Shown: positions 44,981 to 57,210 of the stretch, piece after piece
Layout: each line of letters opens with the position of its first letter
Numbering within the stretch: the first letter of the stretch is position 1
Assembly (NCBI RefSeq): GCF_004361735.1
Contig: NZ_SNVV01000005.1
Span: 1 to 64,000 of the forward strand
Length of the DNA stretch: 64,000 nt
Reading direction: 5' to 3'
Source of the DNA: Azoarcus indigens
Lineage (GTDB): Bacteria; Pseudomonadota; Gammaproteobacteria; Burkholderiales; Rhodocyclaceae
Translations under genes and position numbers: made by a program
The notes under the pieces: generated by a model
Database searches by the model: none
Seen by the model: the letters and a program-made list of their open reading frames with translations, nothing else
What the model was told of the DNA's origin: nothing

Positions 44981-44983
44981 GCT

Positions 44984-45859
44984 TCAGCTTTCCGCGATGT
45001 CGGCCAGCAGCGCCGCCAGCGCCTGCGGTTGCGACATGAAGGGCGAGTGGCTGGCGTCCAGCGTGTGCACCCGGGTGGGATGGGCCGGCACGAAGGCGTC
45101 GGCGGCGGCGATGAAGCGCTGCTGCAGCGCCGGGCGTATCGCCTGGTCCTGCAGGCAGCGGATGTAGTGCCGCGGCACCGCGCCCCAGCGCGCGGCGGTG
45201 GTGGCGACCGGCGTGGCGAAGGGCGCGACCGGCACGTCCGGTGTCAGCAGGTTGGCGACGGCGGCGTAGGCGATGTCGTCCACATCGCCGTAGAAGGCCG
45301 CCTTGCTGGCGGCGCGGTAGGCCTCGTCGGCGCTGCGGTGGTTGATGCGCAGCGCGCCGACCGCGCTGGGGTCGGCCACGAACAGGCCGCCGACCCGCTG
45401 GCCCTCGTTCTCCGGCGCATCGATGTAGCTCACCGCCGGCACGCCGGATTCCGGCATGAAGGCGGTGAGATAGACCAGGTGGGCGATGGCCTCCGGTGCC
45501 CGCTCCGCCACCGCGCTGGCGACGATGCCGCCCATGCTGTGGGCGACCAGCACCACCTTGTCGTAGCCCAGGCCGCGCAGGCGCTGCAGCGTGGCGAGGG
45601 TGGCGTCCACGTAGTCGTTGAGCGTGACGCCGGCCACCGGCGAGGTTTCGGTAGCGAGCTTGGCCGGCCGCTGCGGCTGCTCCAGGTAGGTGGCGGGGAA
45701 GCGGGCGTTGAGGCCGTGGGCCGGCAGGTCGCAGGCGACGGCGGCATGGCCGCGCGCGGCCAGCAGCGGGATGATGCGCTCATAGGTCCAGGCGCCGTGC
45801 CAGGCACCGTGGACGAGCAGGAAGGGCAGGGCGGAAGAAGGGCGGCGGGTATCGCTCAT
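44984..45859 (-). CDS. Alpha/beta hydrolase (plant methylesterase-like)
   Basis: A 291-residue serine hydrolase. The oxyanion loop is FLLVHGAWHGAWTYERIIPL, the nucleophile elbow GHSMGG-like sequence is VLVAHSMGGIVAS (Ser near residue 108), and the catalytic histidine is in LDASHSPFMSQP near the end. The GAWHGAW opening and ASHSPF close resemble salicylate/methyl-ester hydrolases (MES/SABP2-like). It converges on the MFS gene with only 3 bp between the stops. It lies 94 bp downstream of the amidotransferase gene and could be the last gene of the oxygenase operon, for ester or amide release, but this is uncertain. Confidence 0.82.
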   Translation of the reverse strand: MSDTRRPSSALPFLLVHGAWHGAWTYERIIPLLAARGHAAVACDLPAHGLNARFPATYLEQPQRPAKLATETSPVAGVTLNDYVDATLATLQRLRGLGYDKVVLVAHSMGGIVASAVAERAPEAIAHLVYLTAFMPESGVPAVSYIDAPENEGQRVGGLFVADPSAVGALRINHRSADEAYRAASKAAFYGDVDDIAYAAVANLLTPDVPVAPFATPVATTAARWGAVPRHYIRCLQDQAIRPALQQRFIAAADAFVPAHPTRVHTLDASHSPFMSQPQALAALLADIAES

Positions 45860-45953
45860 GGTTTTGTCTCCTGTTGTCGTCGGCCTTGTCGGTGGCCGCT
45901 GGTGTGACAGCAGGATAGCCCCAAGCAGCGCCGCGGTGCATCGCGGCGCGTGC

Positions 45954-46676
45954 TCACACCGCCAGCTTGCGGCTCCAGCGCTGGTACAGCCGTTTCATCA
46001 CCGCATGCATGGCGGCGCTGCGGTTGTCGGCGTCGCGCAGGGTTTCGGCGCGGCTGCTGACCGCCGGGTTGCCAGCGGCGAGTTCGCGGTCGATCTCATG
46101 GCCGTTGCGCTCCACCGACAGTTCGATGAGGGCCGGCGTCATCTCCAGGTGGCATTGCATGCCGAGGTGGCGGTCGCGGGCGACGAAGACCTGGTGGGGG
46201 CAATCGGCGCTGCTCGCCAGCAGAACCGCGCCCGGCGGCAGCTCGAAGGTGTCGCCATGCCACTGGAACACTGGGATCTCGGCGCCGGCGTCGCCGCCGA
46301 ACCATTCCGCCGCGTAGGGAACGGCGGCAACCTTGATGCGCTGCCAGCCGATTTCCCGCCGCGGGTTGCGCCGCACCTGGGCGCCCAGCGCATGGGCGAG
46401 GATCTGGCTACCGAGGCAATGGCCGGCCACCGGGATGCCCTGGCGGTCGGCTTCGCGGATCAGCTGGAACTCCTGCTCCATCCACGGCAGGCCGTCGTTC
46501 ACGCCCATGTAGCCGCCCATGAACACCAGGCCGGAATAGGCGGAGGGGGACTCCGGCACCGGCGCGCCATCCACCAGCGGAATCACCACCGAGGGGATGC
46601 CGAGCTGCTCCAGCACCGCCGGCAGCGCGCCGGGCGCGCCCACCTCGGTGTGCTGAAAGATGGCGACCGGCTTCAT
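45954..46676 (-). CDS. Class I glutamine amidotransferase (TdnT/GMP-synthase-like)
   Basis: A 240-residue class I amidotransferase domain protein. The catalytic triad is Cys87 (AGHCLGSQILAHALG), His176 and Glu178 (MQCHLEMT). Alone, without a synthase domain, such proteins often hydrolyse gamma-glutamyl amides. In aniline degradation the homologous TdnT/AtdA2-type protein works against the GS-like ligase. Here it is 34 bp after the last ABC gene, in the same leftward operon as a GS-like ligase and a Rieske oxygenase. I therefore infer release of glutamate from a gamma-glutamylated intermediate or substrate. Confidence 0.82.
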   Translation of the reverse strand: MKPVAIFQHTEVGAPGALPAVLEQLGIPSVVIPLVDGAPVPESPSAYSGLVFMGGYMGVNDGLPWMEQEFQLIREADRQGIPVAGHCLGSQILAHALGAQVRRNPRREIGWQRIKVAAVPYAAEWFGGDAGAEIPVFQWHGDTFELPPGAVLLASSADCPHQVFVARDRHLGMQCHLEMTPALIELSVERNGHEIDRELAAGNPAVSSRAETLRDADNRSAAMHAVMKRLYQRWSRKLAV

Positions 46677-46710
46677 GGCTGGCCTCCCCGGCGAACGGAT
46701 TGCTGCGACA

Positions 46711-47457
46711 TCAGGCGAACCCCATCAGTTGATTCAGATGGTCCGGATTGTGCAGCAGAGTGTCGCTGGCGCCGTCGTAGATGATGCGGCCGCGGTCCAT
46801 CACCACCGCCTTGCTGGTCAGCTCCAGCGCCTGGCGGGCGTGCTGCTCGACCAGGATGAAGGAGAGGTCGCGGTCCAGCGTCATCTGGCCGATGGCGCGC
46901 ACCAGCTCCTCCACCACCACCGGGGCCAGGCCTTCCAGCGGTTCGTCCAGCAGCAGCAGGCGGGGGTTGAGCAGCAGCGCGCGGGCGATGGCCAGCATCT
47001 GCTGTTCGCCGCCGGAGAGCTGGGTGCCCATGTTGTCCTCGCGTTCCTGCAGGCGGGGGAAGAGTTCGTACACCCGCTCCAGCGTCCATTTGCCCGGCCG
47101 GGCGGTGACGGCGAGGTTCTCGCGCACCGTCAGCGAAGGGAAGATCCAGCGTTCCTGCGGCACCCAGCCGAGGCCGGCGGCGGAGCGGCGGTGCGCCGGC
47201 ACGGCCACCAGGTCGCCGCCGCGCCACTGCATGCGGCCGCCGCGCAGCACGGTGGCGCCCATCAGGGTGGCGATCAGCGTGCTCTTGCCGACGCCGTTGC
47301 GGCCCAGCAGGGCCAGGGTTTCGCCCTCGGCCAGGGTGAGGTTGATGTCTTCCAGGATGACCGCGCGGTCGTAGCCGGCGCTCACGCCCTCCAGGCGCAG
47401 CAGCGGCGTGTCGCCGGCGGCGCTTGCCGCCGGCGCGGGGGAAACAGCGGTGCTCAT
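46711..47457 (-). CDS. Branched-chain-type ABC importer, ATP-binding protein LivF-like
   Basis: A 248-residue ATPase of the HAAT (branched-chain amino acid/urea/amide) importer type. Walker A is GRNGVGKST (about residues 51-59), with LGWVPQERWIFPSLTVRENL, the signature LSGGEQQMLAIARAL, Walker B LLLLDEPLEGLAP and H-loop FILVEQH. The start overlaps the LivG-like stop by one base (TGATG). Together with the four preceding genes it forms a complete transporter. The long Ala/Pro-rich N-terminus (residues 1-18) is unremarkable. Confidence 0.94.
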   Translation of the reverse strand: MSTAVSPAPAASAAGDTPLLRLEGVSAGYDRAVILEDINLTLAEGETLALLGRNGVGKSTLIATLMGATVLRGGRMQWRGGDLVAVPAHRRSAAGLGWVPQERWIFPSLTVRENLAVTARPGKWTLERVYELFPRLQEREDNMGTQLSGGEQQMLAIARALLLNPRLLLLDEPLEGLAPVVVEELVRAIGQMTLDRDLSFILVEQHARQALELTSKAVVMDRGRIIYDGASDTLLHNPDHLNQLMGFA

Positions 47458-48212
47458 CAGGCGTGGCCCTCCGAATTGCCGAGATACACCGTGCGCACCT
47501 CGGGATTGGCCATGATCTCGGCCGGCGTGCCTTCGGCCAGGATGCCGCCGGCCACCAGCACGGTGACGCGGCTGGCGAAGCGCGACACCAGGTGCATGTC
47601 GTGCTCGATGAAGAGCAGCGAGATGTCTTCCGGCAGTTCGGCGATCACCTCGAACAGCTCGGCGCTCTCGCCGGAGGGAATGCCGGCGGCCGGCTCGTCC
47701 AGCAGCAGCACCCGCGGCCGCAGCGCCAGCGCCACCGCCACTTCGACGATGCGCTGCTGGCCGTAGGGCAGGGTGCGGGTGAGCAGGTGGCCGACGTGGC
47801 CCAGGTGCAGCCGCGCCAGGATTTCCGCGGCCTCGTCCAGCGCCGCGCGGTGCTCGCCGGTGCGCTTGTACCAGCGCGCGGTGAGGCCCAGGCGCTCGCA
47901 TACCGCCAGCGTCACCGACTGCATCGGCGTCAGCTCCGGGAACAGCGAGGTGACCTGGAAGGTGCGCGCCAGCCCGCGCTTGACGCGCTGGTCCGGCCGC
48001 TGGCCGGTGATGTCCTCGCCCAGCAGGGTGATGCTGCCGCTGGTGGCGGGCACGGTGCCGGTGAGCAGGTTGATGAAGGTGGTCTTGCCGGCGCCGTTGG
48101 GGCCGATCAGCGCATGGCGGGCGCCCACCGGCAGGCTGAAGTCCACCGCGCGGGTGACCTGCAGCGCGCCGTAGTTCTTGCTCAGACCGGCAGTGGTGAG
48201 GGCAATGCTCAT
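47457..48212 (-). CDS. Branched-chain-type ABC importer, ATP-binding protein LivG-like
   Basis: A 251-residue ATPase with Walker A GPNGAGKT (about residues 38-45), RTFQVTSLFPELTPMQSV, a Walker B LLLDEPAAGIPSGE, and H-loop FIEHDMHLV. Notably, the ABC signature reads LPYGQQRIVEVAVAL, so the usual LSGG/LSYG is shifted to LPYG, a variant that is common in this group. Its ATG overlaps the LivM-like stop (ATGA) and its stop overlaps the LivF-like start, so translation is coupled. Partner of the LivF-like ATPase. Confidence 0.93.
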   Translation of the reverse strand: MSIALTTAGLSKNYGALQVTRAVDFSLPVGARHALIGPNGAGKTTFINLLTGTVPATSGSITLLGEDITGQRPDQRVKRGLARTFQVTSLFPELTPMQSVTLAVCERLGLTARWYKRTGEHRAALDEAAEILARLHLGHVGHLLTRTLPYGQQRIVEVAVALALRPRVLLLDEPAAGIPSGESAELFEVIAELPEDISLLFIEHDMHLVSRFASRVTVLVAGGILAEGTPAEIMANPEVRTVYLGNSEGHA

Positions 48213-49252
48213 GCCGCACCTCCCTTGGTTGCCGGGGTGGCGGGCGCCGCTTTGGCGGTGCTGGTCCTGGCCACCGGCAGCAGGCGCTGGCGCAGCGAGC
48301 GCAGGATGCCGAGCACGCCGCCGGGGGCGAACAGCACCACCAGCACCATCACTCCGCCGACGCCGAACTGCCAGTACTGCGGGTTGAGGTCGGACAGCAG
48401 GTCGCGGGCGATCACGAACACCGCCGCGCCCACCAGGCCGCCGTAGCGGTGGCCGGCGCCGCCCAGCAGCAGCATGATCAGCACCTCGGCGGAGAGGCCG
48501 AAGGACAGCGTTTCCAGCGCCACGAACTGGCTGGTCTGCGCCATCAGCGCGCCGGCGATGCCGGCGAAGACGGCGGCGAACACATAGGCCTGGCGCAGGC
48601 GGGCGGCGGTCGGCGTGCCGATGGCCGCCATCCGCTTCGGGTTCTCGCGCAGGCCTTCCAGGGTGAGGCCGAAGGGCGAGTCTATGACCCGGGTGGCGAC
48701 GATGAAGCACAGCGCCAGCACCACGAAGGTGTAGAAGAAGGCGGTCTGGCCGAACAGGTCGAACTCGAACAGGCCCAGCACCGGCGATACCACCATGCCC
48801 TGCAGGCCATCGTCGCCGCCGGTGAGCCAGCGCGCGCGGTTGGCGGCCTCGAACACCAGCAGGCCGAAGCCCAGCGTCACCATCAACTGCGCCAGGTGCT
48901 GCACCCGCACTACCGCGAAGCTGGTGATGAAGCCGACCAGGCCGGCTACCAGGGCCGCAATCAGCAGGCCGGAGATGGGCTCGCCCCAGCCGTGCACCGC
49001 CAGCAGGCCGGCGGTGTAGGCGCCGATGCCGAAGAACATGGCGTGGCCCAGCGACAGCAGGCCGGCGTAGCCCACCAGCAGGTCCAGCGACAGCGCGAAC
49101 AGGCCGAGCGCGGCGACGTGGGTGGCGAGCAGGTAGTACTCGGGGAGGAACAGGGCGACCGCGAGCGGTACCGCGAGCCACAGGGCGATCTCGCCGCCGC
49201 GCCGCCGCAGCCAGCCGGCCTCGGCGGTGGAGGGGGGACAGGATGGGGTCAC
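48209..49252 (-). CDS. Branched-chain-type ABC importer, permease LivM-like
   Basis: A 347-residue permease with about ten hydrophobic segments. It has the LivM signature region LDLLVGYAGLLSLGHAMFFGIGAYTAG and the ATPase-contact loop SPFGLTLEGLRENPKRMAAIG. I take the GTG at 49252, which overlaps the LivH-like stop by 4 bp (GTGA); a longer ATG start at 49285 would overlap by 37 bp. A Lys/Ala/Pro-rich tail ends the protein. It forms the channel with the LivH-like permease. Confidence 0.93.
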   Translation of the reverse strand: MTPSCPPSTAEAGWLRRRGGEIALWLAVPLAVALFLPEYYLLATHVAALGLFALSLDLLVGYAGLLSLGHAMFFGIGAYTAGLLAVHGWGEPISGLLIAALVAGLVGFITSFAVVRVQHLAQLMVTLGFGLLVFEAANRARWLTGGDDGLQGMVVSPVLGLFEFDLFGQTAFFYTFVVLALCFIVATRVIDSPFGLTLEGLRENPKRMAAIGTPTAARLRQAYVFAAVFAGIAGALMAQTSQFVALETLSFGLSAEVLIMLLLGGAGHRYGGLVGAAVFVIARDLLSDLNPQYWQFGVGGVMVLVVLFAPGGVLGILRSLRQRLLPVARTSTAKAAPATPATKGGAA

Positions 49253-50115
49253 GATTTCTTTCCCAGCAGGCCGTGCGGACGCCACATCAGCAGGGCGACC
49301 ATGACTGCGTAAATGATGAAGGAGCCGATTTCCGGCAGGAAGTACTTGGTCATCATGTCGATGACGCCGACCACGCAGGCCGCCAGCAGCGCGCCGCCGA
49401 CCGAGCCCAGGCCGCCGACCGAGACGACGATGAGGAAGAGCACCAGGTACTTCAGCGGGAAGGCCGGGGTGAGGCCGAGGATCTGGATGCCCAGCGCCCC
49501 GCCCAGGCCGGCCAGGCCGCTGCCGATGGCGAAGGTGAGGGCGAACACGCCGCCGACATTGATGCCCAGGCCGGTGGCCATCACCGGGTTATCCACCGCG
49601 GCGCGGATCTTGGCGCCGAAGCGGGTGCGCTCCACCCCCAGCACCACCGCGGCGGCGACCAGCAGGCCGACGGCGACCAGGAACAGGCGGAAGATGCCCA
49701 CTTCCAGGCCGAAGAGGCTGACCTGGCCCTGCAGGAAGGCGGGCAGCACCACCGGTTGCTGGCTGGGGCCGTAGAACCAGGTGATGCCGGCCACCGACAT
49801 GAAGGTGAGGCCGACGGTGAACAGCACCTGGTCCAGCGGGCCGCGCCGGTACAGGCGCTGGTACAGCAGGCGCTCGACGACGATGCTGGCGAGCGCCACC
49901 AGGGCGAAGGCGACGGGCAGGGTGACCAGGAAGGGCACCCCGGCCCGCTGCATCAAGGTGGTCGCGACATACCCACCGAACATGGCGAAGGCGCCATGGG
50001 CGAGGTTGACGAACCCCATCATCCCCATCGTCACGGAGAGGCCGATGCTGATCAGGAACAGCAGCATCCCGTAGGCCAGACCGTCGAACAGGACGGTGAG
50101 CAGTATCGCAAGCAT
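49249..50115 (-). CDS. Branched-chain-type ABC importer, permease LivH-like
   Basis: A 288-residue permease with eight hydrophobic segments and the LivH pattern: FDGLAYGMLLFLISIGLSVTMGMMGFVNLAHGAFAMFGGY near the N-terminus, RTRFGAKIRAAVDNPVMATGLG (ATPase contact) and GLGSVGGALLAACVVGV near the end. It begins 24 bp after the binding-protein gene and overlaps the LivM-like gene. Confidence 0.94.
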   Translation of the reverse strand: MLAILLTVLFDGLAYGMLLFLISIGLSVTMGMMGFVNLAHGAFAMFGGYVATTLMQRAGVPFLVTLPVAFALVALASIVVERLLYQRLYRRGPLDQVLFTVGLTFMSVAGITWFYGPSQQPVVLPAFLQGQVSLFGLEVGIFRLFLVAVGLLVAAAVVLGVERTRFGAKIRAAVDNPVMATGLGINVGGVFALTFAIGSGLAGLGGALGIQILGLTPAFPLKYLVLFLIVVSVGGLGSVGGALLAACVVGVIDMMTKYFLPEIGSFIIYAVMVALLMWRPHGLLGKKS

Positions 50116-50139
50116 CTGGTGCGTGCCTCCGTATGACGG

Positions 50140-51324
50140 TTACTGGGCTTCCTTGGCCGGGTCCTTGACCCGCTCGAACTTGTCGAACTCGACGTTCACC
50201 AGTTCGCCGTCGACCTTCTCCACCTTGCGGATGTAGACCGTCTGCACGATGTCGCGGGTGGCGGCGTCGATCTCGATCGGGCCGCGCGGGCTTTCCAGCT
50301 TCAGGCCCTTGAGCGCTTCCATGACCTTGTCGCCGCTAACGTCGCCCTTGGTCTTCTCCAGCGCGCCGGCGATGGCGGCCATGCCGTCATAGGCGCTGAC
50401 GGCGAAGTAGCTGGGGCGCATTTCCTTGCCGAAGGCGGCGTAGAAGTTCTTCACGAACTTCTTGTTCAGCTCGGACGGGTGGGCGTAGGAGTAGTGGTGG
50501 CTGGTGATGAGGCCCAGCGCCACGTCGCCGGTGGCCTGCAGGTAGCTGTCGTCGGTGGCTTCGCCGGTGGCGAAGAGCTTGATGCCGGCTTCGTCCAGGC
50601 CGCGTTCCTTCCAGGCCTTGAGGAAGGCCGGGGGCATCACGCCGGAGGGGAAGAAGAAGAACACCGACTGCGGCTTCTCGTCCTTGATGCGCTGCACGTA
50701 GGCGGAGAAGTCCGGGTTGTTCATCGGCGTGCGTACGCTGCCGACCACCTTGCCGCCGCCGGCGGCGAAGGCTTTCTCGAAGGCATTGTGGGCGTCGGTG
50801 CCGGAGGCGTAGTCGGCCACCACCACATAGGTTTCCTTGATGCCGTTCTTCAGCATCCACTGCGCCATCGGCGCGGAATCCTGCTGCACGGTGAAGGATA
50901 CGCGGGCGATGTAGGGCGAGCTGGTGGTGATCGCCGAGGAGGAGGCGTTCATCACCACCGTCGGGATCTTGGCCTGGGTGACGATGGGGGCGATGGCGTA
51001 GGCGTTGGGGCTGAAGTCCAGGCCGGTGATGAAGTTCACCTTGTCGCGCACGATCAGCTCCTGGGCGAAGCGCTTGGCTGCGTCCGGGCCGGGGCCGGCG
51101 GTGTCCTTCTTCACGACCTCCACCTTCTTGCCGGCGATCTTGCCGTCATGTTCCTTGAGGTAGAGCTGGATGCCGGCGTCGAACTGACGGCCGTAGTCGG
51201 CGTAGGGGCCGGAGAAGGTTGCGATGACGCCGATGCGGAGAGGATCGTCGGCGGCAACGGCAACGTTCGCCAGGCTCGCACCCGCGAGCGCGAGGGCGGC
51301 CAGCAGGCCTGCTTTCTTCATCAT
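50140..51324 (-). CDS. Branched-chain-type ABC importer, substrate-binding protein
   Basis: A 394-residue periplasmic binding protein (type 1 fold, receptor family ligand-binding). The signal peptide is residues about 1-24 (cleavage VAVAADD). The mature start LRIGVIATFSGPYADYGRQF is characteristic, as are the FITGLDFSPNAYAIAPIVTQAKIP and AYDGMAAIAGALEKTKGD segments. Family relatives bind branched amino acids, amides, urea or aromatic acids; in aromatic-degradation operons they bind the growth substrate. I use ATG 51324 behind GTGGAG; an ATG 12 bp upstream is possible. Confidence 0.93.
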   Translation of the reverse strand: MMKKAGLLAALALAGASLANVAVAADDPLRIGVIATFSGPYADYGRQFDAGIQLYLKEHDGKIAGKKVEVVKKDTAGPGPDAAKRFAQELIVRDKVNFITGLDFSPNAYAIAPIVTQAKIPTVVMNASSSAITTSSPYIARVSFTVQQDSAPMAQWMLKNGIKETYVVVADYASGTDAHNAFEKAFAAGGGKVVGSVRTPMNNPDFSAYVQRIKDEKPQSVFFFFPSGVMPPAFLKAWKERGLDEAGIKLFATGEATDDSYLQATGDVALGLITSHHYSYAHPSELNKKFVKNFYAAFGKEMRPSYFAVSAYDGMAAIAGALEKTKGDVSGDKVMEALKGLKLESPRGPIEIDAATRDIVQTVYIRKVEKVDGELVNVEFDKFERVKDPAKEAQ

Positions 51325-51376
51325 GGGAATCTCCACTTCATGATGCCCCTATCTCTGTGGGGCGGGGGTTGGCGGC

Positions 51377-51397
51377 CCGGCGGAGGTCTTCCGCCGG
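51377..51397 (-). promoter_or_regulatory. Intercistronic stem-loop between reductase and binding-protein genes
   Basis: CCGGCGGA (51377-51384) and TCCGCCGG (51390-51397) form a perfect 8-bp stem with a 5-base loop inside the 133-bp space. There is no U-run on the minus strand. It may tune expression of the transporter half of the operon relative to the enzyme half. Confidence 0.4.
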
Positions 51398-51457
51398 TAC
51401 ATCGTCCTGCGCGCTAGCGTGGCGGCAGGATCGCTTGTTCCCTCGTACCGGCGCGCC

Positions 51458-52699
51458 TCAGGCGAGCAGGGACTTGAGATCGAAGGATTCGTCTGCCAGC
51501 TGCGCTGCGCTGGCGCTGGCGCTGGCGCCGGCGGCAACCAGCTTGCGGCCCAGCATGTGCTCGGCCGGGCGGCTGGCAGTATGCACCGCCGCCATGCGTC
51601 CCTTGCGCAGGCAGAACACGGTGAAGCGGCCGCCGGCGGGATCGCCGCGGACCACGACTTCGTCGTCCGCCGCCATCAGGCCGGCCATCTGCAGCTTGGC
51701 GTCGTACTGGTCGCTCCAGAACCAGGGCACCGCGGCGTAGGGCTGTGGCGCGCCCACCAGCAGGCTGGCGGCGGCGCGGGCGAGGTCGTTGGCGGCCTGG
51801 ATGGATTCCAGCCGTATCGGCAGCGCCGGATCGGGCGCATAGGGGTTGGGGAAGGCGGCGCAGTCGCCGGCGGCCAGCACGCGGGGCGCGGAGGTCTGCC
51901 CCAGGCCGTCGGTGAGGATGCCGTTGGCGCAGGCGATGCCGGCGGCTTCGGCCAGCCCGGTGTTGGGAATCACGCCGATGCCGACCACGACCAGGTCGCA
52001 GTCGATGCGCTCGCCGCTGGCCAGTTCCACCGCACACACCTTGCCGTTGTCGCCTTGCAGGGCGGAAACGGCCTGGCCGAAGGCAAAGCGGACGCCGTTG
52101 CGGCGGTGCAGGTCTTCGACGAAGGCGCTCATCTGCGGCGTGACCGCGCGGGCGAGCAGGCGCGGCAGGGCCTCGACCACGGTGACGTCCAGCCCGCGGC
52201 CGGCGAGGGCGGCGGCGACTTCGAGTCCAATGAAGCCGCCGCCGATGATACAGGCGCGGCGGGCGCCGCCCGCCGCGGCATCCAGCCGCAGCGCGTCATC
52301 CACCGTGCGCACTTCCAGCACGCCGGCGAGGTCGGCGCCGGCCACCGGCAGCGGCCGGCAGCGGGCGCCGGTGGTGAGCGCCAGCCAGTCATATTCCAGG
52401 CGGCTGCCATCGTCCAGCGCGACCTGCTGCCGCTCCGGCGCCAGCGCGGCGACGCGGCGGCCGAGCAGCAGTTCGATGCCGCTCTCGCGGTAGAACGCCT
52501 CGCTTTTCACCGGCAGCGATTCCACCGTGCTCTTGCCGGTGAGCAGGCCCTTGGACAGCGGCGGGCGCTGGTAGGGCGGCAGGGCTTCGTCGCCGATCAT
52601 GACGATGCGGCCTTCGAAGCCGAGGTTGCGGGCGCTGGCGGCCAGCTGCAGGCCGGCATAGGAGGCGCCGGCGATGAGCAGGGCGGCACGTGCGTTCAT
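51458..52699 (-). CDS. FAD-dependent ferredoxin reductase (rhodocoxin/putidaredoxin reductase type)
   Basis: Passes electrons from NAD(P)H to the ferredoxin encoded next to it. The 413-residue protein has the first dinucleotide motif LIAGASYAGLQLAASAR (FAD, residues about 7-23), the YQRPPLSKGLL motif, the second motif IIGGGFIGLEVAAALAGRGL (NAD(P)H, near residue 145), and VLAAGDCAAFPNPY (FAD ribityl). The C-terminal reductase domain is PWFWSDQYDAKLQMAG. The start at 52699 has GGAG 6 bp upstream. It lies 25 bp downstream of the ferredoxin gene. Confidence 0.93.
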   Translation of the reverse strand: MNARAALLIAGASYAGLQLAASARNLGFEGRIVMIGDEALPPYQRPPLSKGLLTGKSTVESLPVKSEAFYRESGIELLLGRRVAALAPERQQVALDDGSRLEYDWLALTTGARCRPLPVAGADLAGVLEVRTVDDALRLDAAAGGARRACIIGGGFIGLEVAAALAGRGLDVTVVEALPRLLARAVTPQMSAFVEDLHRRNGVRFAFGQAVSALQGDNGKVCAVELASGERIDCDLVVVGIGVIPNTGLAEAAGIACANGILTDGLGQTSAPRVLAAGDCAAFPNPYAPDPALPIRLESIQAANDLARAAASLLVGAPQPYAAVPWFWSDQYDAKLQMAGLMAADDEVVVRGDPAGGRFTVFCLRKGRMAAVHTASRPAEHMLGRKLVAAGASASASAAQLADESFDLKSLLA

Positions 52700-52724
52700 G
52701 GCGGTCTCCACGGGGCGTCGCCGT

Positions 52725-53048
52725 TCAGGCCTGGGTGGCAGGCACGGTGATGATGATGCCGTCCAGCTCGGCGCTCATCGGCAGCTGGCAGCTCAGGCGG
52801 CTGGTGGGGCGGCGCTCGGCGGTCACGCCTTCCAGCAGCTCCTGCTCCATGTCGTCGGCCGGCGGCAGGCGGTCGAGGAAGGCCTCGTCTACGTACACAT
52901 GGCAGGTGGCACAGGAGCAGCAGCCGCCGCATTCGGCGTCGATGCCGCGGATGTTGGCGCGGATGGCGGCTTCCATGACGCTGAGGCCGGCGGGCGCATC
53001 CACCGCGCGGGTGCTGCCGTCCTTGAGGATGTAGTTGATCGTGGGCAT
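52725..53048 (-). CDS. [2Fe-2S] ferredoxin, adrenodoxin/putidaredoxin type
   Basis: A 107-residue electron carrier. The cluster ligands are Cys40, Cys46, Cys49 (C-x5-C-x2-C in ECGGCCSCATC) and Cys87 (RLSCQLPM), the vertebrate-type arrangement found in camphor and dicamba monooxygenase systems. Two extra cysteines (43, 44) are inside the loop. The acidic helix DEAFLDRLPPADDMEQELLE is the usual docking surface. Its ATG overlaps the ligase stop by one base (TGATG), so it is translated with it. It should carry electrons from the reductase to the Rieske oxygenase. Confidence 0.94.
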   Translation of the reverse strand: MPTINYILKDGSTRAVDAPAGLSVMEAAIRANIRGIDAECGGCCSCATCHVYVDEAFLDRLPPADDMEQELLEGVTAERRPTSRLSCQLPMSAELDGIIITVPATQA

Positions 53049-54487
53049 CAGAACATCTCGAAATACTCGCGGTGCTCCCATTCGGAGACCTCGAGGTTGA
53101 ATCGGGCGATCTCGGCGTGCTTGATGTGGCACAGGTAGTCCACGAAGCGCTGGCCGAGTTGTTCGCAGAGGTAGGCGTCGGCGCGCAGGCAGTCGAGCGC
53201 GTCGCCCAGGGTGCGGGGCAGCTGCTCCGCCGGGGTTTCGTAGGGCGCGTCCGCCGAGGGGCCGGGGTCCAGCCTGCGTTCCAGGCCGTCCAGCCCGGAG
53301 AAGAGCTGGGAGGCGAGGTAGAGATAGGGATTGGCGGTGGGTTCGCCGATCCGGTTCTCGATCCGGGTGCCGGCATCGCCGACGCCGCCCAGCACCCGCA
53401 GCATGGCGCCGCGGTTGTCCCGGCCCCACACCGCGCGGTCGGGCGCCAGGGAGAAGGGGCGGTAGCGGCGGTAGCCGTTGATGGTGGGGCTGGCGAGCGC
53501 GGCGGAGGCGCAGGCGTGCTTGAGCAGGCCGCCGAGGTAGTGGCGGCCGGCGTCGCTCAGGTCCTGGCCGGCGGCTTCCGGGATGAAGGCGTTGGCGCCG
53601 CTGCTCTTGTGGCGCAGGGACTGGTGCAGGTGCCAGCCGCTGGACATCACGTTGGGGATCTTGGGCCGGCACATGAAGGTGGCGTGGTAGCCGTGGCGGC
53701 GGCACACCTGCTTCACCGCGCTGCGCAGCAGCACCATGGCGTCCGCCGGGGCGAGGCCGACGGTGGGGCCGAAGGTGAGCTCGAACTGGCTGGGGCCGAA
53801 TTCGATCTCCAGGGAGCGCAGCGGCAGGCCCAGGCCCTGCAGGTTGGTGCGCAGCAGTTCCATCACCGCGTCCACATCGTCGTAGCGCTGTTCGGTGAGG
53901 TACTGGTGGCCGTGCGACAGCAGCGACACCGCCGGCGGCGTGCCGGGCTGGCCGGAGTCGGCCAGGTTCATGCGCTTGTCGTCAAGGCGGAAGACGTGGA
54001 ATTCCACCTCCAGCCCGGCGACGAACTCCAGCCCGTGGGCGTCCAGCCGCTGCACCGCGCGGCGCAGGATGTTGCGGGTGGACAGCGGCGAGGGCCGGCC
54101 GTCGCTCATGAACATGTCGCACAGCAGCCAGCCTGTGCGGTTGGCCCAGGGCAGCACCTTGAAGGTGGCCGGGTCGGCCACCATGGTGAAGTCGGCGCCG
54201 CCCTGCATGCCCTCGAAGTCGAAGCCGCCGCCGGTGGCGAACACCGGGAAGACGGTCTTGTGCGAGGTGTCCTTGGCGAGCAGCGTGGTGGTCATGTTCA
54301 CCCCGCTGCGCAGGGCCGACTTGGCCTCCGCCGCAACCAGGGTCTTGCCGCGCAGCACGCCGTGCTGGTCGGGGAAGGCGAAGCGCACGAGCTCCAGCCC
54401 GTCGGCGTCGATGCGGCGGATGACTTCATCCGCCGCGGCCGCCTGCTCCGCCGTCCACACGTCGAATCGATCGACAAAGCTGGCCAT
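53048..54487 (-). CDS. Glutamine-synthetase-like ligase (gamma-glutamylamide synthetase type)
   Basis: A 479-residue GS-fold ligase: ATP, glutamate and an amine give a gamma-glutamylamide. Visible elements are the beta-grasp N-terminal domain (VRFAFPDQHGVLRGKTL), the metal site EVEFHVFRLDD (glutamates near residue 160), SLEIEFGPSQFELTFGP, MSSGWHLHQSL (ATP/metal His), the glutamate-binding NGYRRYRPFSLAPDRAVWG, and RIENRIGEPTANPYLYLA. The final Tyr/Arg adenylylation region of housekeeping GlnA is absent, so it is a specialised ligase like TdnQ/AtdA1 or PuuA. Position between oxygenase and ferredoxin genes indicates that it activates the oxygenase's amine substrate. Substrate unknown. Confidence 0.88.
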   Translation of the reverse strand: MASFVDRFDVWTAEQAAAADEVIRRIDADGLELVRFAFPDQHGVLRGKTLVAAEAKSALRSGVNMTTTLLAKDTSHKTVFPVFATGGGFDFEGMQGGADFTMVADPATFKVLPWANRTGWLLCDMFMSDGRPSPLSTRNILRRAVQRLDAHGLEFVAGLEVEFHVFRLDDKRMNLADSGQPGTPPAVSLLSHGHQYLTEQRYDDVDAVMELLRTNLQGLGLPLRSLEIEFGPSQFELTFGPTVGLAPADAMVLLRSAVKQVCRRHGYHATFMCRPKIPNVMSSGWHLHQSLRHKSSGANAFIPEAAGQDLSDAGRHYLGGLLKHACASAALASPTINGYRRYRPFSLAPDRAVWGRDNRGAMLRVLGGVGDAGTRIENRIGEPTANPYLYLASQLFSGLDGLERRLDPGPSADAPYETPAEQLPRTLGDALDCLRADAYLCEQLGQRFVDYLCHIKHAEIARFNLEVSEWEHREYFEMF

Positions 54488-54496
54488 GCCGGCTCC

Positions 54497-55822
54497 TTAC
54501 TTCGCCAGCCGCGCAGCGGCCCAGGTGGATTCCCGGCGGCGCTTGAGGTCGGCCTCGCGCCAGTAGGTTTCCGGCTCGCTGCCGCTGGTGTTGACGCCGT
54601 CGATGGAGGGCGGGCCGCTGAAGGTGGCGGCCTGCGCCTGGTCGATCAGCATGGGCACGCTGTCGCCGGCCTGGGTGCGCTCGATGGCATCCACCAGGAT
54701 GCGGCGGTAGGCGATGATGCCCTTGTCGGTGGTGCCCAGGTGCTCGCGGGTGCGGTCCTGGATGGTGCCCTGGGATTCGATCGCCCACTGGTCGTGCACA
54801 TTGATGTCCATGCCCATGCCGGTGTAGGTCTGGGTGTTCTGCTCGGCGACGCTGTAGCCGTAGTTGTTGCGCTTGTTCTGGCGCGAGGTGTAGTCCGGCA
54901 ATTCGTACAGCTTCAGGCGCTGCTCGCGCATCTGTTCCTTGTTCACCGGGCCGGTGAAGCTGGTGAAGATGGCGTACCAGTAGCAATTGTGGTCATCGAC
55001 CGGTACATGCCACTGGGAGATGGTCATCTCCGAGCTCATCGGGATCACGAAAGCCTGCGGGAAGACGACGTTGGTCACCCGCACGTGGGTGGTGTTCTCG
55101 TTCAGCTCGCGCAGCGTGGTCAGGCGCAGGCCGTAGTCGGTGCTGTCCACCTTGATCTCGGGGCGGTCGTACTCGCGCAGCACTTTGGTGATCGGGATCT
55201 GGGAGTCGGCGGAGGCGCCGCGGAACTGCTTGCCGTAGCTCTCGTCGGTGCTTTCGTCTTCGAAGAAGCGGTGCAGGTAGGAGGCGTGGGCGGGGTCGAT
55301 GCCGACTTCCAGCGCCTGCAGCCAGTTGCACTCGAACAGGCCCTTGAAGGCGAACACATGGCTGTCCGGGGCGACGAAACAGTCGAACTCCGGGAAGGCC
55401 GGCGGCTCGCCCTCGCCCAGGTAGGCGAAGATGATCCCGCTCTTCTCCACCACCGGGTAGGCGGACTGCTTGATGCGGGTGCACAGCTTGCTGCCCACCG
55501 GCTCGGCCGGCGTTTCCAGACAGGTGCCCTTGGTATCGAACAGCCAGCCGTGGAAGGGGCAGCGCAGGCCGCCACCCTCGAGGCGGCCGTAGGCCAGGTC
55601 GGCGCCGCGGTGCGGACAGTCGCGGTCCAGCATGCCCAGCTCACCCTTCTCATCGCGGAACAGGACGAAGTCCTGGCCCATCAGGCGCACCGCGCGCACC
55701 GGGCGCTCGCCCGCCAGCTCATCGGTGAGCGCTACCGGCTGCCAGTAGCGGCGCAGCAGTTTGCCGGCGGGCGCTTCAGGCCCGACGCGGGTGATCAAAT
55801 CATTCTGTTCGGCACTGATCAT
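54497..55822 (-). CDS. Rieske non-heme iron oxygenase, phthalate-dioxygenase type
   Basis: A 441-residue oxygenase alpha subunit that hydroxylates or dealkylates with O2 and two electrons. The Rieske cluster ligands are Cys69-x-His71 and Cys88-xx-His91 (CPHRGADLAYGR, then CPFHGW). The mononuclear iron ligands are His179 and His184 (GIDPAHASYLH), with Asp176 as bridge to the next subunit. The opening VGPEAPAGKLLRRYWQPVAL is the hallmark of the phthalate 4,5-dioxygenase/phenoxybenzoate-dioxygenase subgroup, which forms alpha3 or alpha6 without a beta subunit, and none is encoded here. It is the first gene of the leftward operon, with GGAG before the ATG. Confidence 0.93.
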   Translation of the reverse strand: MISAEQNDLITRVGPEAPAGKLLRRYWQPVALTDELAGERPVRAVRLMGQDFVLFRDEKGELGMLDRDCPHRGADLAYGRLEGGGLRCPFHGWLFDTKGTCLETPAEPVGSKLCTRIKQSAYPVVEKSGIIFAYLGEGEPPAFPEFDCFVAPDSHVFAFKGLFECNWLQALEVGIDPAHASYLHRFFEDESTDESYGKQFRGASADSQIPITKVLREYDRPEIKVDSTDYGLRLTTLRELNENTTHVRVTNVVFPQAFVIPMSSEMTISQWHVPVDDHNCYWYAIFTSFTGPVNKEQMREQRLKLYELPDYTSRQNKRNNYGYSVAEQNTQTYTGMGMDINVHDQWAIESQGTIQDRTREHLGTTDKGIIAYRRILVDAIERTQAGDSVPMLIDQAQAATFSGPPSIDGVNTSGSEPETYWREADLKRRRESTWAAARLAK

Positions 55823-55847
55823 GGTGTTCTCCAGCGTTGGTCATGTA

Positions 55848-55867
55848 CTGCATGCAATTGCATGCAA
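55848..55867. promoter_or_regulatory. Operator O1: tandem TTGCATGCAA sites at the oxygenase promoter
   Basis: CTGCATGCAA (55848-55857) directly abuts TTGCATGCAA (55858-55867). Together they contain the perfect 18-bp palindrome TGCATGCAATTGCATGCA at 55849-55866. The site abuts the -10 element and covers the expected transcription start of the leftward operon, the place for a repressor. Confidence 0.75.
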
Positions 55868-55894
55868 TGATAGACAGCACTTGATCCAGGTCAA
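55867..55894 (-). promoter_or_regulatory. Sigma-70 promoter of the oxygenase operon with an FNR-like box over the -35
   Basis: On the minus strand TTGACC (55894-55889) and TATCAT (55872-55867) are spaced by 16 bp, about 45 bp upstream of the oxygenase start codon. The -35 is part of TTGACCTGGATCAA (55894-55881), which differs in one base from the FNR/ANR/DNR consensus TTGAT-N4-ATCAA. Oxygen-dependent control of an oxygen-using pathway is possible. Confidence 0.65.
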
Positions 55895-56042
55895 CAAAAA
55901 TTGCATTTTCGTGACTGTCGGCTATCAGGTATACACATGACCGGATATCCTGCGGCACAGTCGGGAATGGGCTTGCCTCTGGCGTAAATGCTCGGTTTTC
56001 CCGGGATTTTGCTGAGGCGCTTCCTTCCAGTGCAGCGTTTGC

Positions 56043-56104
56043 TTGCATGTTGTTGCATGCAAAATCCAAGCCAGTGATTCTCCGTGCTGTATGCTTGCAT
56101 GCAA
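56043..56104. promoter_or_regulatory. Operators O2-O3: further TTGCATGCAA palindromes
   Basis: Perfect copies of TTGCATGCAA are at 56053-56062 and 56095-56104. A degenerate copy (TTGCATGTTG) is at 56043-56052, directly abutting the first as in O1. Another one-mismatch copy, TTGTATGCAA, is at 56164-56173. Perfect copies O2 and O3 have centres 42 bp apart, four helical turns. They are likely auxiliary or regulator-side operators of the GntR protein at 56461. Confidence 0.7.
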
Positions 56105-56460
56105 AGACGATGCGCAAGGCTTGCAGCTGGCTGAAAACGCGGGCCTTGTGGCGACTTGAGCGCTTGTATGCAATGGCCTGCAGCGCGGCTCGGGCAGGCG
56201 CTGGTGGCTGCACCGCCGTGGGGCATGCCGGCACCCGGCCGGTGCGGTGAAATGCGGGCGGGGCGGCCGGCGAGCGGCAGGGCGAGGGCCGGGTAGAATC
56301 CGCCGCTGGCTGCTGCCGTGGCCAGCGTACGCGAGGCGCGGGCGCGGCCTTCCGGTCCGCGTCGGGCGGTAGTGCCCGGATCGTGCTTCGTGGAGCCGAT
56401 CCGGCGGGCCGCGGCCCGCCGGGCATGTCCGGTAACCATGAATCCCAGGGAAGAAATCCC

Positions 56461-57210
56461 ATGATGCAGTCTCAGCAGTCCCGCGTTCTGGTGCAGTTGC
56501 GCGATCTCATCCTCAAGGGTGCGTTTTCGCCCGGAGAACGCTTGGCGGAGATCCCTCTGGCCGAGCGGCTGGAATCCTCGCGCACGCCGGTGCGCCTCGC
56601 GCTGGCCACGCTGGAGCACGAAGGCTTGATCGAGCCGCTGGCCGGCGGCGGCTACCAGATGCGCCGCTTCACCGCCCAGGAGGTGGCCGACGCCATCGAG
56701 GTGCGCGGCATGCTGGAGGGCATGGCGGCGCGCCTGCTGGCCGAGCGCGGCGCTTCCCGCCAGCTGATGCGCGAGTTCGAGGAATGCCTGGAACAGGGCG
56801 ACGAGGCGGTGAACAAGCCCACCATGGATTTGGACGACTACGCCATCTACCAGGAGATGAACAACCGTTTCCACGAGCTGCTGGTGCAGGGCTGCGGCAA
56901 TTCCGCGCTGATCCGTACCATGGACACGCTGAACGGCTTGCCCTTCGCTGCCGCCAGCGCCACCCTGCCGATGCAGTCGGCCTACAACGAGGAGGGCCAC
57001 CAGTGGATGCGCTACGCCCATCGCCAGCACCACGGCATCATCGATGGCATCAGGCGCAACCAGGGCGCGCGGGTCCAGGCGCTGGCGCAGGAACATGTGC
57101 AGATCGCGCGCATGAACGTGGATGAGGCGCTCGAGCGGCCGGAGCGGGTGGCGGACGTGCTGCCGGGCATCCGCCTGATGGCCGAGGTCGGCCGCCTGCC
57201 GCGGCCGTGA
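56461..57210 (+). CDS. GntR-family (FCD) regulator of the oxygenase operon
   Basis: A 249-residue regulator. The winged helix-turn-helix is residues about 10-72 (VLVQLRDLILKGAFSPGERL, SSRTPVRLALATLEHEGLIE). An FCD all-helical ligand domain follows, with metal-binding-type histidines (NNRFHELLVQG, RQHHGIIDGI, AQEHVQIARM). It is divergent from the Rieske-ligase operon and separated from it only by the palindrome-rich region, so it almost certainly binds the TTGCATGCAA sites. Most such proteins are repressors released by a pathway metabolite. The ATG at 56461 follows GGGAAGAA. Confidence 0.9.
   Translation: MMQSQQSRVLVQLRDLILKGAFSPGERLAEIPLAERLESSRTPVRLALATLEHEGLIEPLAGGGYQMRRFTAQEVADAIEVRGMLEGMAARLLAERGASRQLMREFEECLEQGDEAVNKPTMDLDDYAIYQEMNNRFHELLVQGCGNSALIRTMDTLNGLPFAAASATLPMQSAYNEEGHQWMRYAHRQHHGIIDGIRRNQGARVQALAQEHVQIARMNVDEALERPERVADVLPGIRLMAEVGRLPRP

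What the first reader, a model, noticed from the sequence alone, without database searches (positions are those of the whole stretch)
45954..55822. Possible new amine-catabolic system: GS-like ligase, beta-less Rieske oxygenase, ferredoxin, reductase, importer and amidotransferase in one operon
Seen: nine leftward genes, mostly overlapping, encode a phthalate-dioxygenase-type Rieske oxygenase, a GS-like ligase, an adrenodoxin-type ferredoxin, a FAD reductase, a complete branched-chain-type ABC importer and a stand-alone class I amidotransferase (Cys87/His176/Glu178). Known: aniline degraders use TdnQ (GS-like) to make gamma-glutamylanilide, TdnT (amidotransferase) to hydrolyse it, and an alpha/beta dioxygenase. 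Inference: the same protect-oxidise-release logic, but with an alpha-only oxygenase, dicamba-monooxygenase-like electron carriers and a dedicated importer. It would act on a different, polar amine (amino-aromatic acid, N-alkylamine or heterocyclic amine). I know of no described pathway with this exact set.
Basis: partly seen in the sequence, partly recalled or inferred. Interest (0 to 1): 0.82.

Follow-up and report, generated by a model that had tools for sequence, protein, structure and literature searches.

The report
Sad-type operon, likely for 4-aminobenzoate
A ten-gene bacterial operon that appears to import an amino-aromatic acid (most likely 4-aminobenzoate, the folate building block), tag it with glutamate and oxidise it for food; its enzyme core resembles a known sulfanilate-degrading system, while the natural substrate, the importer and the control sites proposed here are new suggestions.

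Summary
In detail: ten (not nine) leftward genes encode an alpha-only Rieske oxygenase, GS-like ligase, ferredoxin, FAD reductase, branched-chain-type importer and class I amidotransferase (C87/H176/E178). The claim that no such set is described does not: the core matches the gene types of the sad operon (4-aminobenzenesulfonate 3,4-dioxygenase) of Hydrogenophaga, and the Rieske protein is 67% identical to its counterpart in the sulfanilate degrader Novosphingobium resinovorum SA1. The ligase is not GlnA. Rieske-ligase pairing is conserved in 79 of the 80 best relatives; the amidotransferase lies within 15 of those loci. Four lines favour 4-aminobenzoate, giving protocatechuate: the binding protein is 51% identical to a p-hydroxybenzoate-binding protein; some relatives sit beside PcaR-type regulators or nitroreductase, PnbB-family and PcaK-like genes; the host has two predicted protocatechuate 4,5-dioxygenases but no 4-sulfocatechol gene over cut-off (two tested); and the ligase has a lysine, invariant among Sad-type relatives, that ten aniline-type ligases lack. 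A divergent GntR gene has TGCATGCA sites at the promoter, also present in 31 of 38 relatives with that gene. The amidotransferase is probably a safety valve, not the release step. New variant of a known kind; substrate inferred.

The parts
54497..55822 (-). SadA-like Rieske oxygenase, alpha subunit only (441 aa); 3,4-dioxygenase candidate
   Evidence: Pfam Rieske + LigXa_C; Rieske and mononuclear-iron motifs; 67% identical to the N. resinovorum SA1 protein; 20-21% to full-length aniline-type alpha subunits
53048..54487 (-). SadB-like glutamyl-organic-amine synthetase candidate (GS-like ligase, 479 aa)
   Evidence: Best solved relative 8wwu, 460 bits against 183 for the next; its printed sequence agrees with the JS3066 plasmid ligase that I take as NpaA1; tree apart from GlnA; invariant Lys72 and Glu227/Glu229
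52725..53048 (-). 2Fe-2S ferredoxin, ISC/adrenodoxin type (107 aa from ATG)
   Evidence: Fer2, fdx_isc-like below cut-off, Cys cluster
51458..52699 (-). FAD ferredoxin reductase (413 aa)
   Evidence: Pyr_redox_2 + Reductase_C; AndAa-like 324 of 650 bits
50140..51324 (-). Periplasmic binding protein of the importer, benzoate type
   Evidence: Five best fold matches are chains of 4ey3 (p-hydroxybenzoic acid complex), 4eyg, 4evs and 4f06, 42-51% identical
49249..50115 (-). LivH-type permease
   Evidence: UrtB/LivH family, below equivalog cut-offs
48209..49252 (-). LivM-type permease (GTG start)
   Evidence: LivM/UrtC family, below cut-offs; 4-bp overlap with LivH
47457..48212 (-). LivG-type ATPase
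   Evidence: UrtD/LivG family, below cut-offs
46711..47457 (-). LivF-type ATPase
   Evidence: UrtE/LivF family, below cut-offs
45954..46676 (-). Class I amidotransferase (240 aa), probable gamma-glutamyl amide hydrolase
   Evidence: GATase; C87, H176, E178; 40% identity over 147 aa to DcaT
56461..57210 (+). Divergent GntR/FCD regulator, probable repressor
   Evidence: GntR + FCD; a relative at over 50% identity in 38 of 80 loci
55849..55866 (.). Tandem TGCATGCA, candidate operator at the operon promoter
56054..56061 (.). TGCATGCA copy
56096..56103 (.). TGCATGCA copy
55867..55894 (-). Promoter-like site TTGACC-16-TATCAT, the only one found in 44800-56600
   Evidence: one found against 0.7 expected in shuffles, so weak by itself; it abuts the tandem operator
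44984..45859 (-). Alpha/beta hydrolase, 94 bp downstream; doubtful member of the operon
   Evidence: among the 80 loci seen only in the near-identical Azoarcus locus L003

Best explanation
A self-contained catabolic operon for an anionic para-amino-aromatic acid, most likely 4-aminobenzoate. Proposed steps: (1) the benzoate-type ABC importer brings in 4-aminobenzoate; (2) the SadB-like ligase uses ATP to join L-glutamate to the amine, giving N-gamma-glutamyl-4-aminobenzoate, with Lys72 of the neighbouring subunit pairing with the carboxylate; (3) the SadA-like oxygenase, fed electrons by the FAD reductase and ferredoxin, dioxygenates C3/C4, the amide nitrogen leaves (presumably as glutamine) and protocatechuate is formed; (4) protocatechuate enters 4,5-cleavage (LigAB) elsewhere in the genome; (5) the amidotransferase hydrolyses excess conjugate back to the amine as a safety valve; (6) the divergent GntR protein represses through TGCATGCA sites over the promoter until an inducer binds. 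Shown here: gene content, family membership, synteny, operator-like sites, downstream genes. Inferred: substrate, chemistry, role of Lys72, repression.
For: Core gene types agree with the sad system that deaminates 4-aminobenzenesulfonate. The ligase's closest solved relative is 8wwu (NpaA1) and it is apart from GlnA. Binding protein: five best chains belong to 4ey3, 4eyg, 4evs, 4f06; the titles of 4ey3 and 4evs name hydroxybenzoate (the other two titles are cut off in the output; their benzoate-type ligands are recalled); leucine, urea and amide binders are at 19-25% identity. Neighbours in relatives: PcaR/PcaU/PobR-type regulator in 35 of 80 loci (one representative over the curated cut-off), nitroreductase in 7, PnbB-family lyase in 4, PuuD-type hydrolase in 3 of 80; one transporter representative is over the aromatic acid/H+ symport cut-off but below PcaK's. 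Host genome: two LigAB pairs, both alpha subunits over cut-off; best PcaH match 42 of 296 bits; best 4-sulfomuconolactone hydrolase match 214 of 500 bits. Lysine at the NpaA1 Phe75 position in 89 of 89 rows of the window/SA1/Bradyrhizobium set, 4 of 4 candidate sad rows and 2 of 2 further rows near a SadA-type gene; in 0 of 10 ligases next to alpha/beta oxygenase genes. Operators: 59 of 78 TGCATGCA copies in 38 loci with the GntR gene lie in the 400 bp before the Rieske gene.
Against: No biochemical, growth or expression data. The closest strain of known phenotype, N. resinovorum SA1, is a sulfanilate degrader. The PF16155 (PnbB) family is not diagnostic of nitrobenzoate: the host's own copy lies in a benzoyl-CoA (box) cluster, and Bradyrhizobium loci lie beside box genes, so other benzoates are possible. 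Lys72 is confounded by ancestry and near-copies, and the tree neither shows nor rejects a single clade of SadA-linked ligases (p-AU 0.37). The best solved binding proteins hold hydroxylated benzoates, not aminobenzoate. The operon is not next to the LigAB genes (different contigs).
Confidence: 0.65

Rival explanations
1. A true sulfanilate (4-aminobenzenesulfonate) operon: same chemistry, but the product is 4-sulfocatechol.
For: Core gene types as in sad; Rieske 67% identical to that of the sulfanilate degrader SA1, whose locus also holds a maleylacetate reductase gene, an enzyme listed in its 4-sulfocatechol cluster; four candidate sad loci fall inside the window's ligase group.
Against: In the host no PcaH-type protein and no 4-sulfomuconolactone hydrolase is over cut-off; the importer resembles carboxylate binders; spread in many soil bacteria argues for a natural substrate, as Gan et al. 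argued for sad.
Confidence: 0.12
2. Same chemistry on another amino-aromatic acid: 3-aminobenzoate, 4-aminosalicylate, an amino-hydroxybenzoate, or 4-aminobenzoate set free from p-aminobenzoyl-glutamate or N-acyl forms by neighbouring amidohydrolases.
For: The binding-protein class covers several benzoates; amidohydrolase genes neighbour some relatives (L037, L071, L079, L084).
Against: PcaR-type, PcaK-like and LigAB context favours a 3,4-dihydroxybenzoate product; 3-aminobenzoate has a different described cluster (mab; PMC9584955, passages).
Confidence: 0.18
3. One reading: an N-alkylamine or heterocyclic amine system of a new kind.
For: Related ligases act on aliphatic amines such as isopropylamine and putrescine (named in PMC11335346 section 10).
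Against: Benzoate-type importer, LigXa-class oxygenase, beta-ketoadipate-type regulators near relatives; ligase closest to an arylamine ligase among solved structures.
Confidence: 0.05

Closest known systems
sad operon, 4-aminobenzenesulfonate 3,4-dioxygenase, Hydrogenophaga intermedia PBC (PMC5632844; passages and sections 11-12 read)
   Same: Rieske-type dioxygenase, GS-like protein and ferredoxin in one operon, deaminating a para-amino-aromatic anion. Four loci from unnamed Comamonadaceae genomes have GntR-Rieske-ligase-ferredoxin and fall inside the window's ligase group with full support.
   Different: Here the reductase gene is in the operon, and an importer and amidotransferase are added. 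The four candidate loci are 57-62% (Rieske) and 50-52% (ligase) identical. That they are Hydrogenophaga sad loci is my inference; the named PBC sequences were not compared.
Sad-like locus of Novosphingobium resinovorum SA1, plasmid pSA3 (sulfanilate degrader)
   Same: Rieske 67% and ligase 60% identical, adjacent, with ferredoxin and reductase in the same locus.
   Different: No importer or amidotransferase of the window's type found in the 25-kb stretch, though a gene annotated glutaminase is there; a maleylacetate reductase gene and folP nearby.
Aniline / chloroaniline / 1-naphthylamine dioxygenase systems (AtdA, TdnQTA1A2B, DcaQTA1A2B, NpaA1-A5)
   Same: GS-like ligase 44-51% identical over the ten compared rows, class I amidotransferase, Rieske oxidation of the gamma-glutamyl amide.
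   Different: Alpha/beta oxygenase, alpha subunit only 20-21% identical in full-length rows; different reductase type (annotated ferredoxin--NADP reductase); ligases lack the lysine.
Benzoate-type ABC importers of Rhodopseudomonas palustris (4ey3, 4eyg, 4evs, 4f06)
   Same: Binding protein 42-51% identical, same fold.
   Different: Aminobenzoate binding not shown.

Membership tests
sad-type 4-aminobenzenesulfonate 3,4-dioxygenase system | Rieske oxygenase gene without beta subunit, directly followed by GS-like ligase gene | tested here: met
   9-bp gap in the window; Rieske upstream in 79 of 80 relatives and no beta-subunit match in any of the 80 loci. That sad itself lacks a beta gene is recalled
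sad-type 4-aminobenzenesulfonate 3,4-dioxygenase system | Ferredoxin and a reductase as electron carriers | tested here: met
   (genes only; electron transfer not shown)
sad-type 4-aminobenzenesulfonate 3,4-dioxygenase system | Sequence orthology to SadA/SadB of strain PBC | tested here: inconclusive
sad-type 4-aminobenzenesulfonate 3,4-dioxygenase system | Converts 4-aminobenzenesulfonate to 4-sulfocatechol | not testable with these tools
   Needs enzyme or growth assay
sad-type 4-aminobenzenesulfonate 3,4-dioxygenase system | Host carries a 4-sulfocatechol lower pathway (needed for growth on sulfanilate) | tested here: not met
   Genome-wide best: PcaH model 42 of 296 bits; 4-sulfomuconolactone hydrolase 214 of 500 bits; other steps not searched. 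Lowers 'sulfanilate operon', not 'Sad-like mechanism'
Aniline dioxygenase (Tdn/Atd/Dca/Npa) | Alpha plus beta oxygenase subunits | tested here: not met
   No beta gene among the operon's ten genes; Rieske alpha 20-21% identical to full-length DcaA1-type proteins
Aniline dioxygenase (Tdn/Atd/Dca/Npa) | Amidotransferase gene beside the ligase | tested here: inconclusive
   An amidotransferase of the same superfamily is last in the operon, 40% over 147 aa to DcaT, not beside the ligase
Glutamyl-organic-amine synthetase (GoaS) | Groups away from GlnA and keeps the amine-binding Glu pair of NpaA1 | tested here: met
   (E227/E229 = NpaA1 E232/E234); activity not tested
Housekeeping GlnA / PuuA | Equivalog score over cut-off | tested here: not met
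   GlnA 229 of 429, PuuA-type 254 of 650 bits
Benzoate-type branched-chain-family importer | Binding protein closest to benzoate-type binding proteins | tested here: met
   ligand not tested

The most novel reading that the evidence does not exclude
This is a first gene set for aerobic 4-aminobenzoate catabolism, i.e. the natural function from which the xenobiotic sulfanilate (sad) pathway was recruited: a unit spread in Beta- and Alphaproteobacteria that glutamylates 4-aminobenzoate, oxidises it to protocatechuate and so consumes a folate precursor that neighbours need, with a lysine from the adjacent ligase subunit acting as the carboxylate/sulfonate clamp that separates acid-type from aniline-type ligases.
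Probability: 0.5. Interest if true: 0.65.

Novelty: new variant of a known kind. Interest (0 to 1): 0.5.

Why it matters
Gan et al. (2017) noted that the sad operon is conserved in the Hydrogenophaga genomes they compared and probably has an unknown natural substrate. The evidence here names a candidate, 4-aminobenzoate, that can be tested directly with purified ligase. If right, it supplies genes for aerobic turnover of a folate precursor, explains the ancestry of sulfanilate degradation, gives one residue that should predict acid-type against aniline-type ligases, and offers an importer and operator pair for sensing or degrading aminobenzoates.

Tried and rejected
Rejected: housekeeping GlnA or PuuA; membership in the aniline alpha/beta systems; amidotransferase as the obligatory release step; urea import, suggested by Urt-like profile hits of the transporter, because those are below cut-off and the fold search puts benzoate binders first, urea binders at 20-25% identity; the PnbB (PF16155) family as proof of nitrobenzoate use, because the host's own copy sits in a box cluster.

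Led nowhere: single-sequence structure model of the binding protein (mean pLDDT 49, not used); literature search by PDB codes (unrelated papers); profile scan of ten other window ORFs (no catabolic link seen); alpha/beta hydrolase as operon member (only in L003 among 80 loci).

Trees: the 38-row ligase tree leaves the window's group, the SA1/Bradyrhizobium group, the aniline group and others in an unresolved fork. A second 39-row tree with the four candidate sad loci puts them in the window's 17-row group (100/99), and joins that group with the SA1 group only weakly (86/52); one clade of all 26 SadA-linked ligases is neither shown nor rejected (p-AU 0.37). The FastTree Rieske tree hangs the aniline group inside the window's group on a very long branch; I used only its identities.

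Not found in print: (open-access PMC library; listings) showed no paper that assigns genes to aerobic 4-aminobenzoate catabolism by glutamylation; most subscription papers are not held, and one passage says 4-aminobenzoate degradation is 'extensively reported' (PMC9584955). Gan et al. 2012 (PubMed 22609751) is not held; from recall only, its abstract says that deleting sadB abolished activity in E. coli and that sadD is the ferredoxin and sadC the reductase (the 2017 legend calls sadC the ferredoxin).

Row notes: the 80 loci are the best of 558 confirmed relatives. The 89 ligase rows were defined by leaving out the aniline-type, candidate sad, three other and three GlnA/PuuA-type rows, and include near-copies (window/L003, L017/L018, L029/L084, L041/L148). 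One search covered 16 genomes that I chose from the 80 loci; 10 of 16 had a match, six of these only at 34-40% identity, which may be general paralogues. The operator word was picked after seeing it in the window; the 40 loci without the GntR gene hold only 5 copies in all, so they are a weak control.
Full report
What is there. The minus strand of 45954-55822 carries ten intact genes in one direction: Rieske oxygenase, GS-like ligase, 2Fe-2S ferredoxin, FAD reductase, periplasmic binding protein, two permeases, two ATPases and a class I amidotransferase (families). Four of nine junctions overlap and the widest gap is 133 bp, between reductase and binding protein. A GntR/FCD regulator is divergent at 56461-57210. 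The nearest named genome is Azoarcus sp. TTM-91, 99% identical in the ligase.

Conservation. Of 558 confirmed ligase relatives in genome contigs the best 80 were kept. A SadA-type Rieske gene is directly upstream in 79 of 80; the miss, L051, starts at a contig end. In the same 80: ferredoxin 33, reductase 32, binding protein at over 50% identity 29, amidotransferase 15, PuuD-type hydrolase 3, GntR 38, PcaR-type regulator 35 (7 of 80 loci have less than 8 kb downstream). The whole ten-gene set is in 9 of 80 and in Polaromonas JS666. In the 39 loci outside the mainly betaproteobacterial set, nearly all from Bradyrhizobium and kin, no ferredoxin or GntR relative was found near, and 34 have the PcaR-type regulator; benzoate-CoA-ligase and BoxC families occur in 30 and 27 of the 87 loci clustered. 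In own-family genomes 6 of 150 have a ligase match at E <= 1e-100, the window's own included; two of the six lie next to alpha/beta oxygenase genes. In Comamonadaceae 21 of 299 match at E <= 1e-150: 22 places, 14 at 70-78% identity, 4 candidate sad loci and 4 beside alpha/beta oxygenase or DcaT-type genes.

Known system. [quoted passage not shown] outline, passages and sections 11-12 read). The named PBC sequences could not be fetched. As surrogate, the sulfanilate degrader N. resinovorum SA1 has the pair on plasmid pSA3, near a maleylacetate reductase gene; its Rieske protein is 67% identical to the window's and its ligase 60%. Four unnamed Comamonadaceae loci (L142-L145) have GntR-Rieske-ligase-ferredoxin and no reductase match beside them, at 57-62% (Rieske) and 50-52% (ligase); I take them as probable Hydrogenophaga-type sad loci, by inference. 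In a tree they fall inside the window's ligase group (100/99).

Ligase. Its best solved relative is 8wwu (460 bits; next 183), whose printed sequence agrees with the ligase of plasmid pJS3066, taken as NpaA1. Trees separate it from GlnA and the host's second GS with full support. The order among the window's group, the SA1/Bradyrhizobium group and the aniline ligases is not firmly resolved: window and SA1 groups join at 86/52, and one clade of all 26 SadA-linked rows is neither shown nor rejected (p-AU 0.37). NpaA1's amine-binding Glu232/Glu234 are kept (Glu227/Glu229). NpaA1's entry loop V68'-M81', which packs on the aromatic ring (PMC11335346; sections 9, 10, 12, 15 and passages read), is changed: the Phe75 position is Lys in 89 of 89 rows of the window/SA1/Bradyrhizobium set, 4 of 4 candidate sad rows and rows L088 and L091, and never Lys in the 10 ligases beside alpha/beta oxygenase genes or in the Streptomyces row L092. 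The Ser80 position is Arg or Lys in 84 of 89. Rows are related and include near-copies, so this is a pattern, not a proof. I read it as an anion clamp for carboxylate or sulfonate.

Oxygenase pairing. The window's Rieske is 20-21% identical to full-length DcaA1-type alpha subunits while the ligases are 44-51% identical: related tagging enzymes are paired with two very different oxygenases.

Substrate. The binding protein modelled with a 21-row alignment (mean pLDDT 85.7) has as its five best chains 4ey3 (title: p-hydroxybenzoic acid), 4eyg (two chains, title cut off), 4evs (title: 4-hydroxybenzo...) and 4f06 (title cut off) at 42-51% identity, against 19-25% for leucine, urea and amide binders; some other aromatic-acid binders are as low as 16-19% in the same list. 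In Cupriavidus and Caballeronia relatives the core lies near a nitroreductase, a 4-hydroxylaminobenzoate-lyase-family gene, a PcaK-like transporter and a PuuD-type hydrolase. The host has two LigAB pairs, no PcaH over cut-off and no 4-sulfomuconolactone hydrolase over cut-off. Dioxygenation of 4-aminobenzoate at C3/C4 would give protocatechuate, the substrate of LigAB (established chemistry, applied by inference). Against: PF16155 also occurs in the host's box cluster; SA1's phenotype is sulfanilate.

Amidotransferase. In aniline degradation the amidotransferase converts toxic gamma-glutamylanilide back to aniline (PMC4539516 section 5), and NpaA2 is not needed for naphthylamine conversion. 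The window's protein is related to DcaT (40% over 147 aa), a relative lies in 15 of 80 loci, and 6 of 16 chosen genomes had no match at E <= 1e-20. A safety valve fits; an obligatory release step does not.

Control. All four TGCATGCA copies in the 64-kb window lie between regulator and operon (by number alone four is unremarkable, 2.35 expected, 22 of 100 shuffles reach it). The position is what counts: over 38 loci with the GntR gene, 59 of 78 copies lie in the 400 bp before the Rieske gene, which is 15.2 of 793.8 kb, and 31 of 38 loci have one; the next palindromic octamer, CATGCATG, which overlaps the same motif, reaches 9 of 38 and the next after it 6. None of 40 loci without the GntR gene has a copy there, but those hold only 5 copies in all. 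The only promoter-like site in the region (-35 at 55894, -10 ending at 55867) abuts the tandem site 55849-55866. No strong internal terminator stands out (five terminator-like hits, 4.1 expected).

Verdict. A Sad-like, probably gamma-glutamylation-dependent Rieske system with its own importer, likely safety valve and operator set; most likely for 4-aminobenzoate. The mechanism class is known; the natural-substrate assignment, importer coupling, lysine signature and operator are the new parts.

Noticed in passing
window 55849-55866, 56054-56061, 56096-56103: TGCATGCA palindromes, found before the Rieske gene in 31 of 38 GntR-bearing relatives: likely operators of an FCD-type GntR regulator.
   Followed up: yes
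L087 1340-2170: A folP (dihydropteroate synthase) gene lies about 8 kb from the sad-like genes on the SA1 plasmid; possibly a guard against sulfanilate as a 4-aminobenzoate analogue.
   Followed up: no
L084 4192-4923, L085 15026-15775: In Cupriavidus and Caballeronia a PuuD-type (Peptidase_C26) hydrolase, not the window's amidotransferase type, lies near the same core: perhaps the same role filled by another branch of the superfamily.
   Followed up: partly
L110 7230-7712: A PF16155 (4-hydroxylaminobenzoate lyase family) gene sits inside a benzoyl-CoA (box) cluster in the host genome, so that family has members outside nitrobenzoate pathways.
   Followed up: partly
L092 5995-9189: Streptomyces tendae plasmid: a related ligase with a carbon-nitrogen hydrolase and an amidotransferase but no annotated Rieske gene in the 13-kb stretch; a possible separate amine pathway.
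   Followed up: no
L005 and L007: In two Verticiella loci the ferredoxin is kept without a reductase match beside it, and the GntR match lies about 7.5 kb upstream.
   Followed up: no
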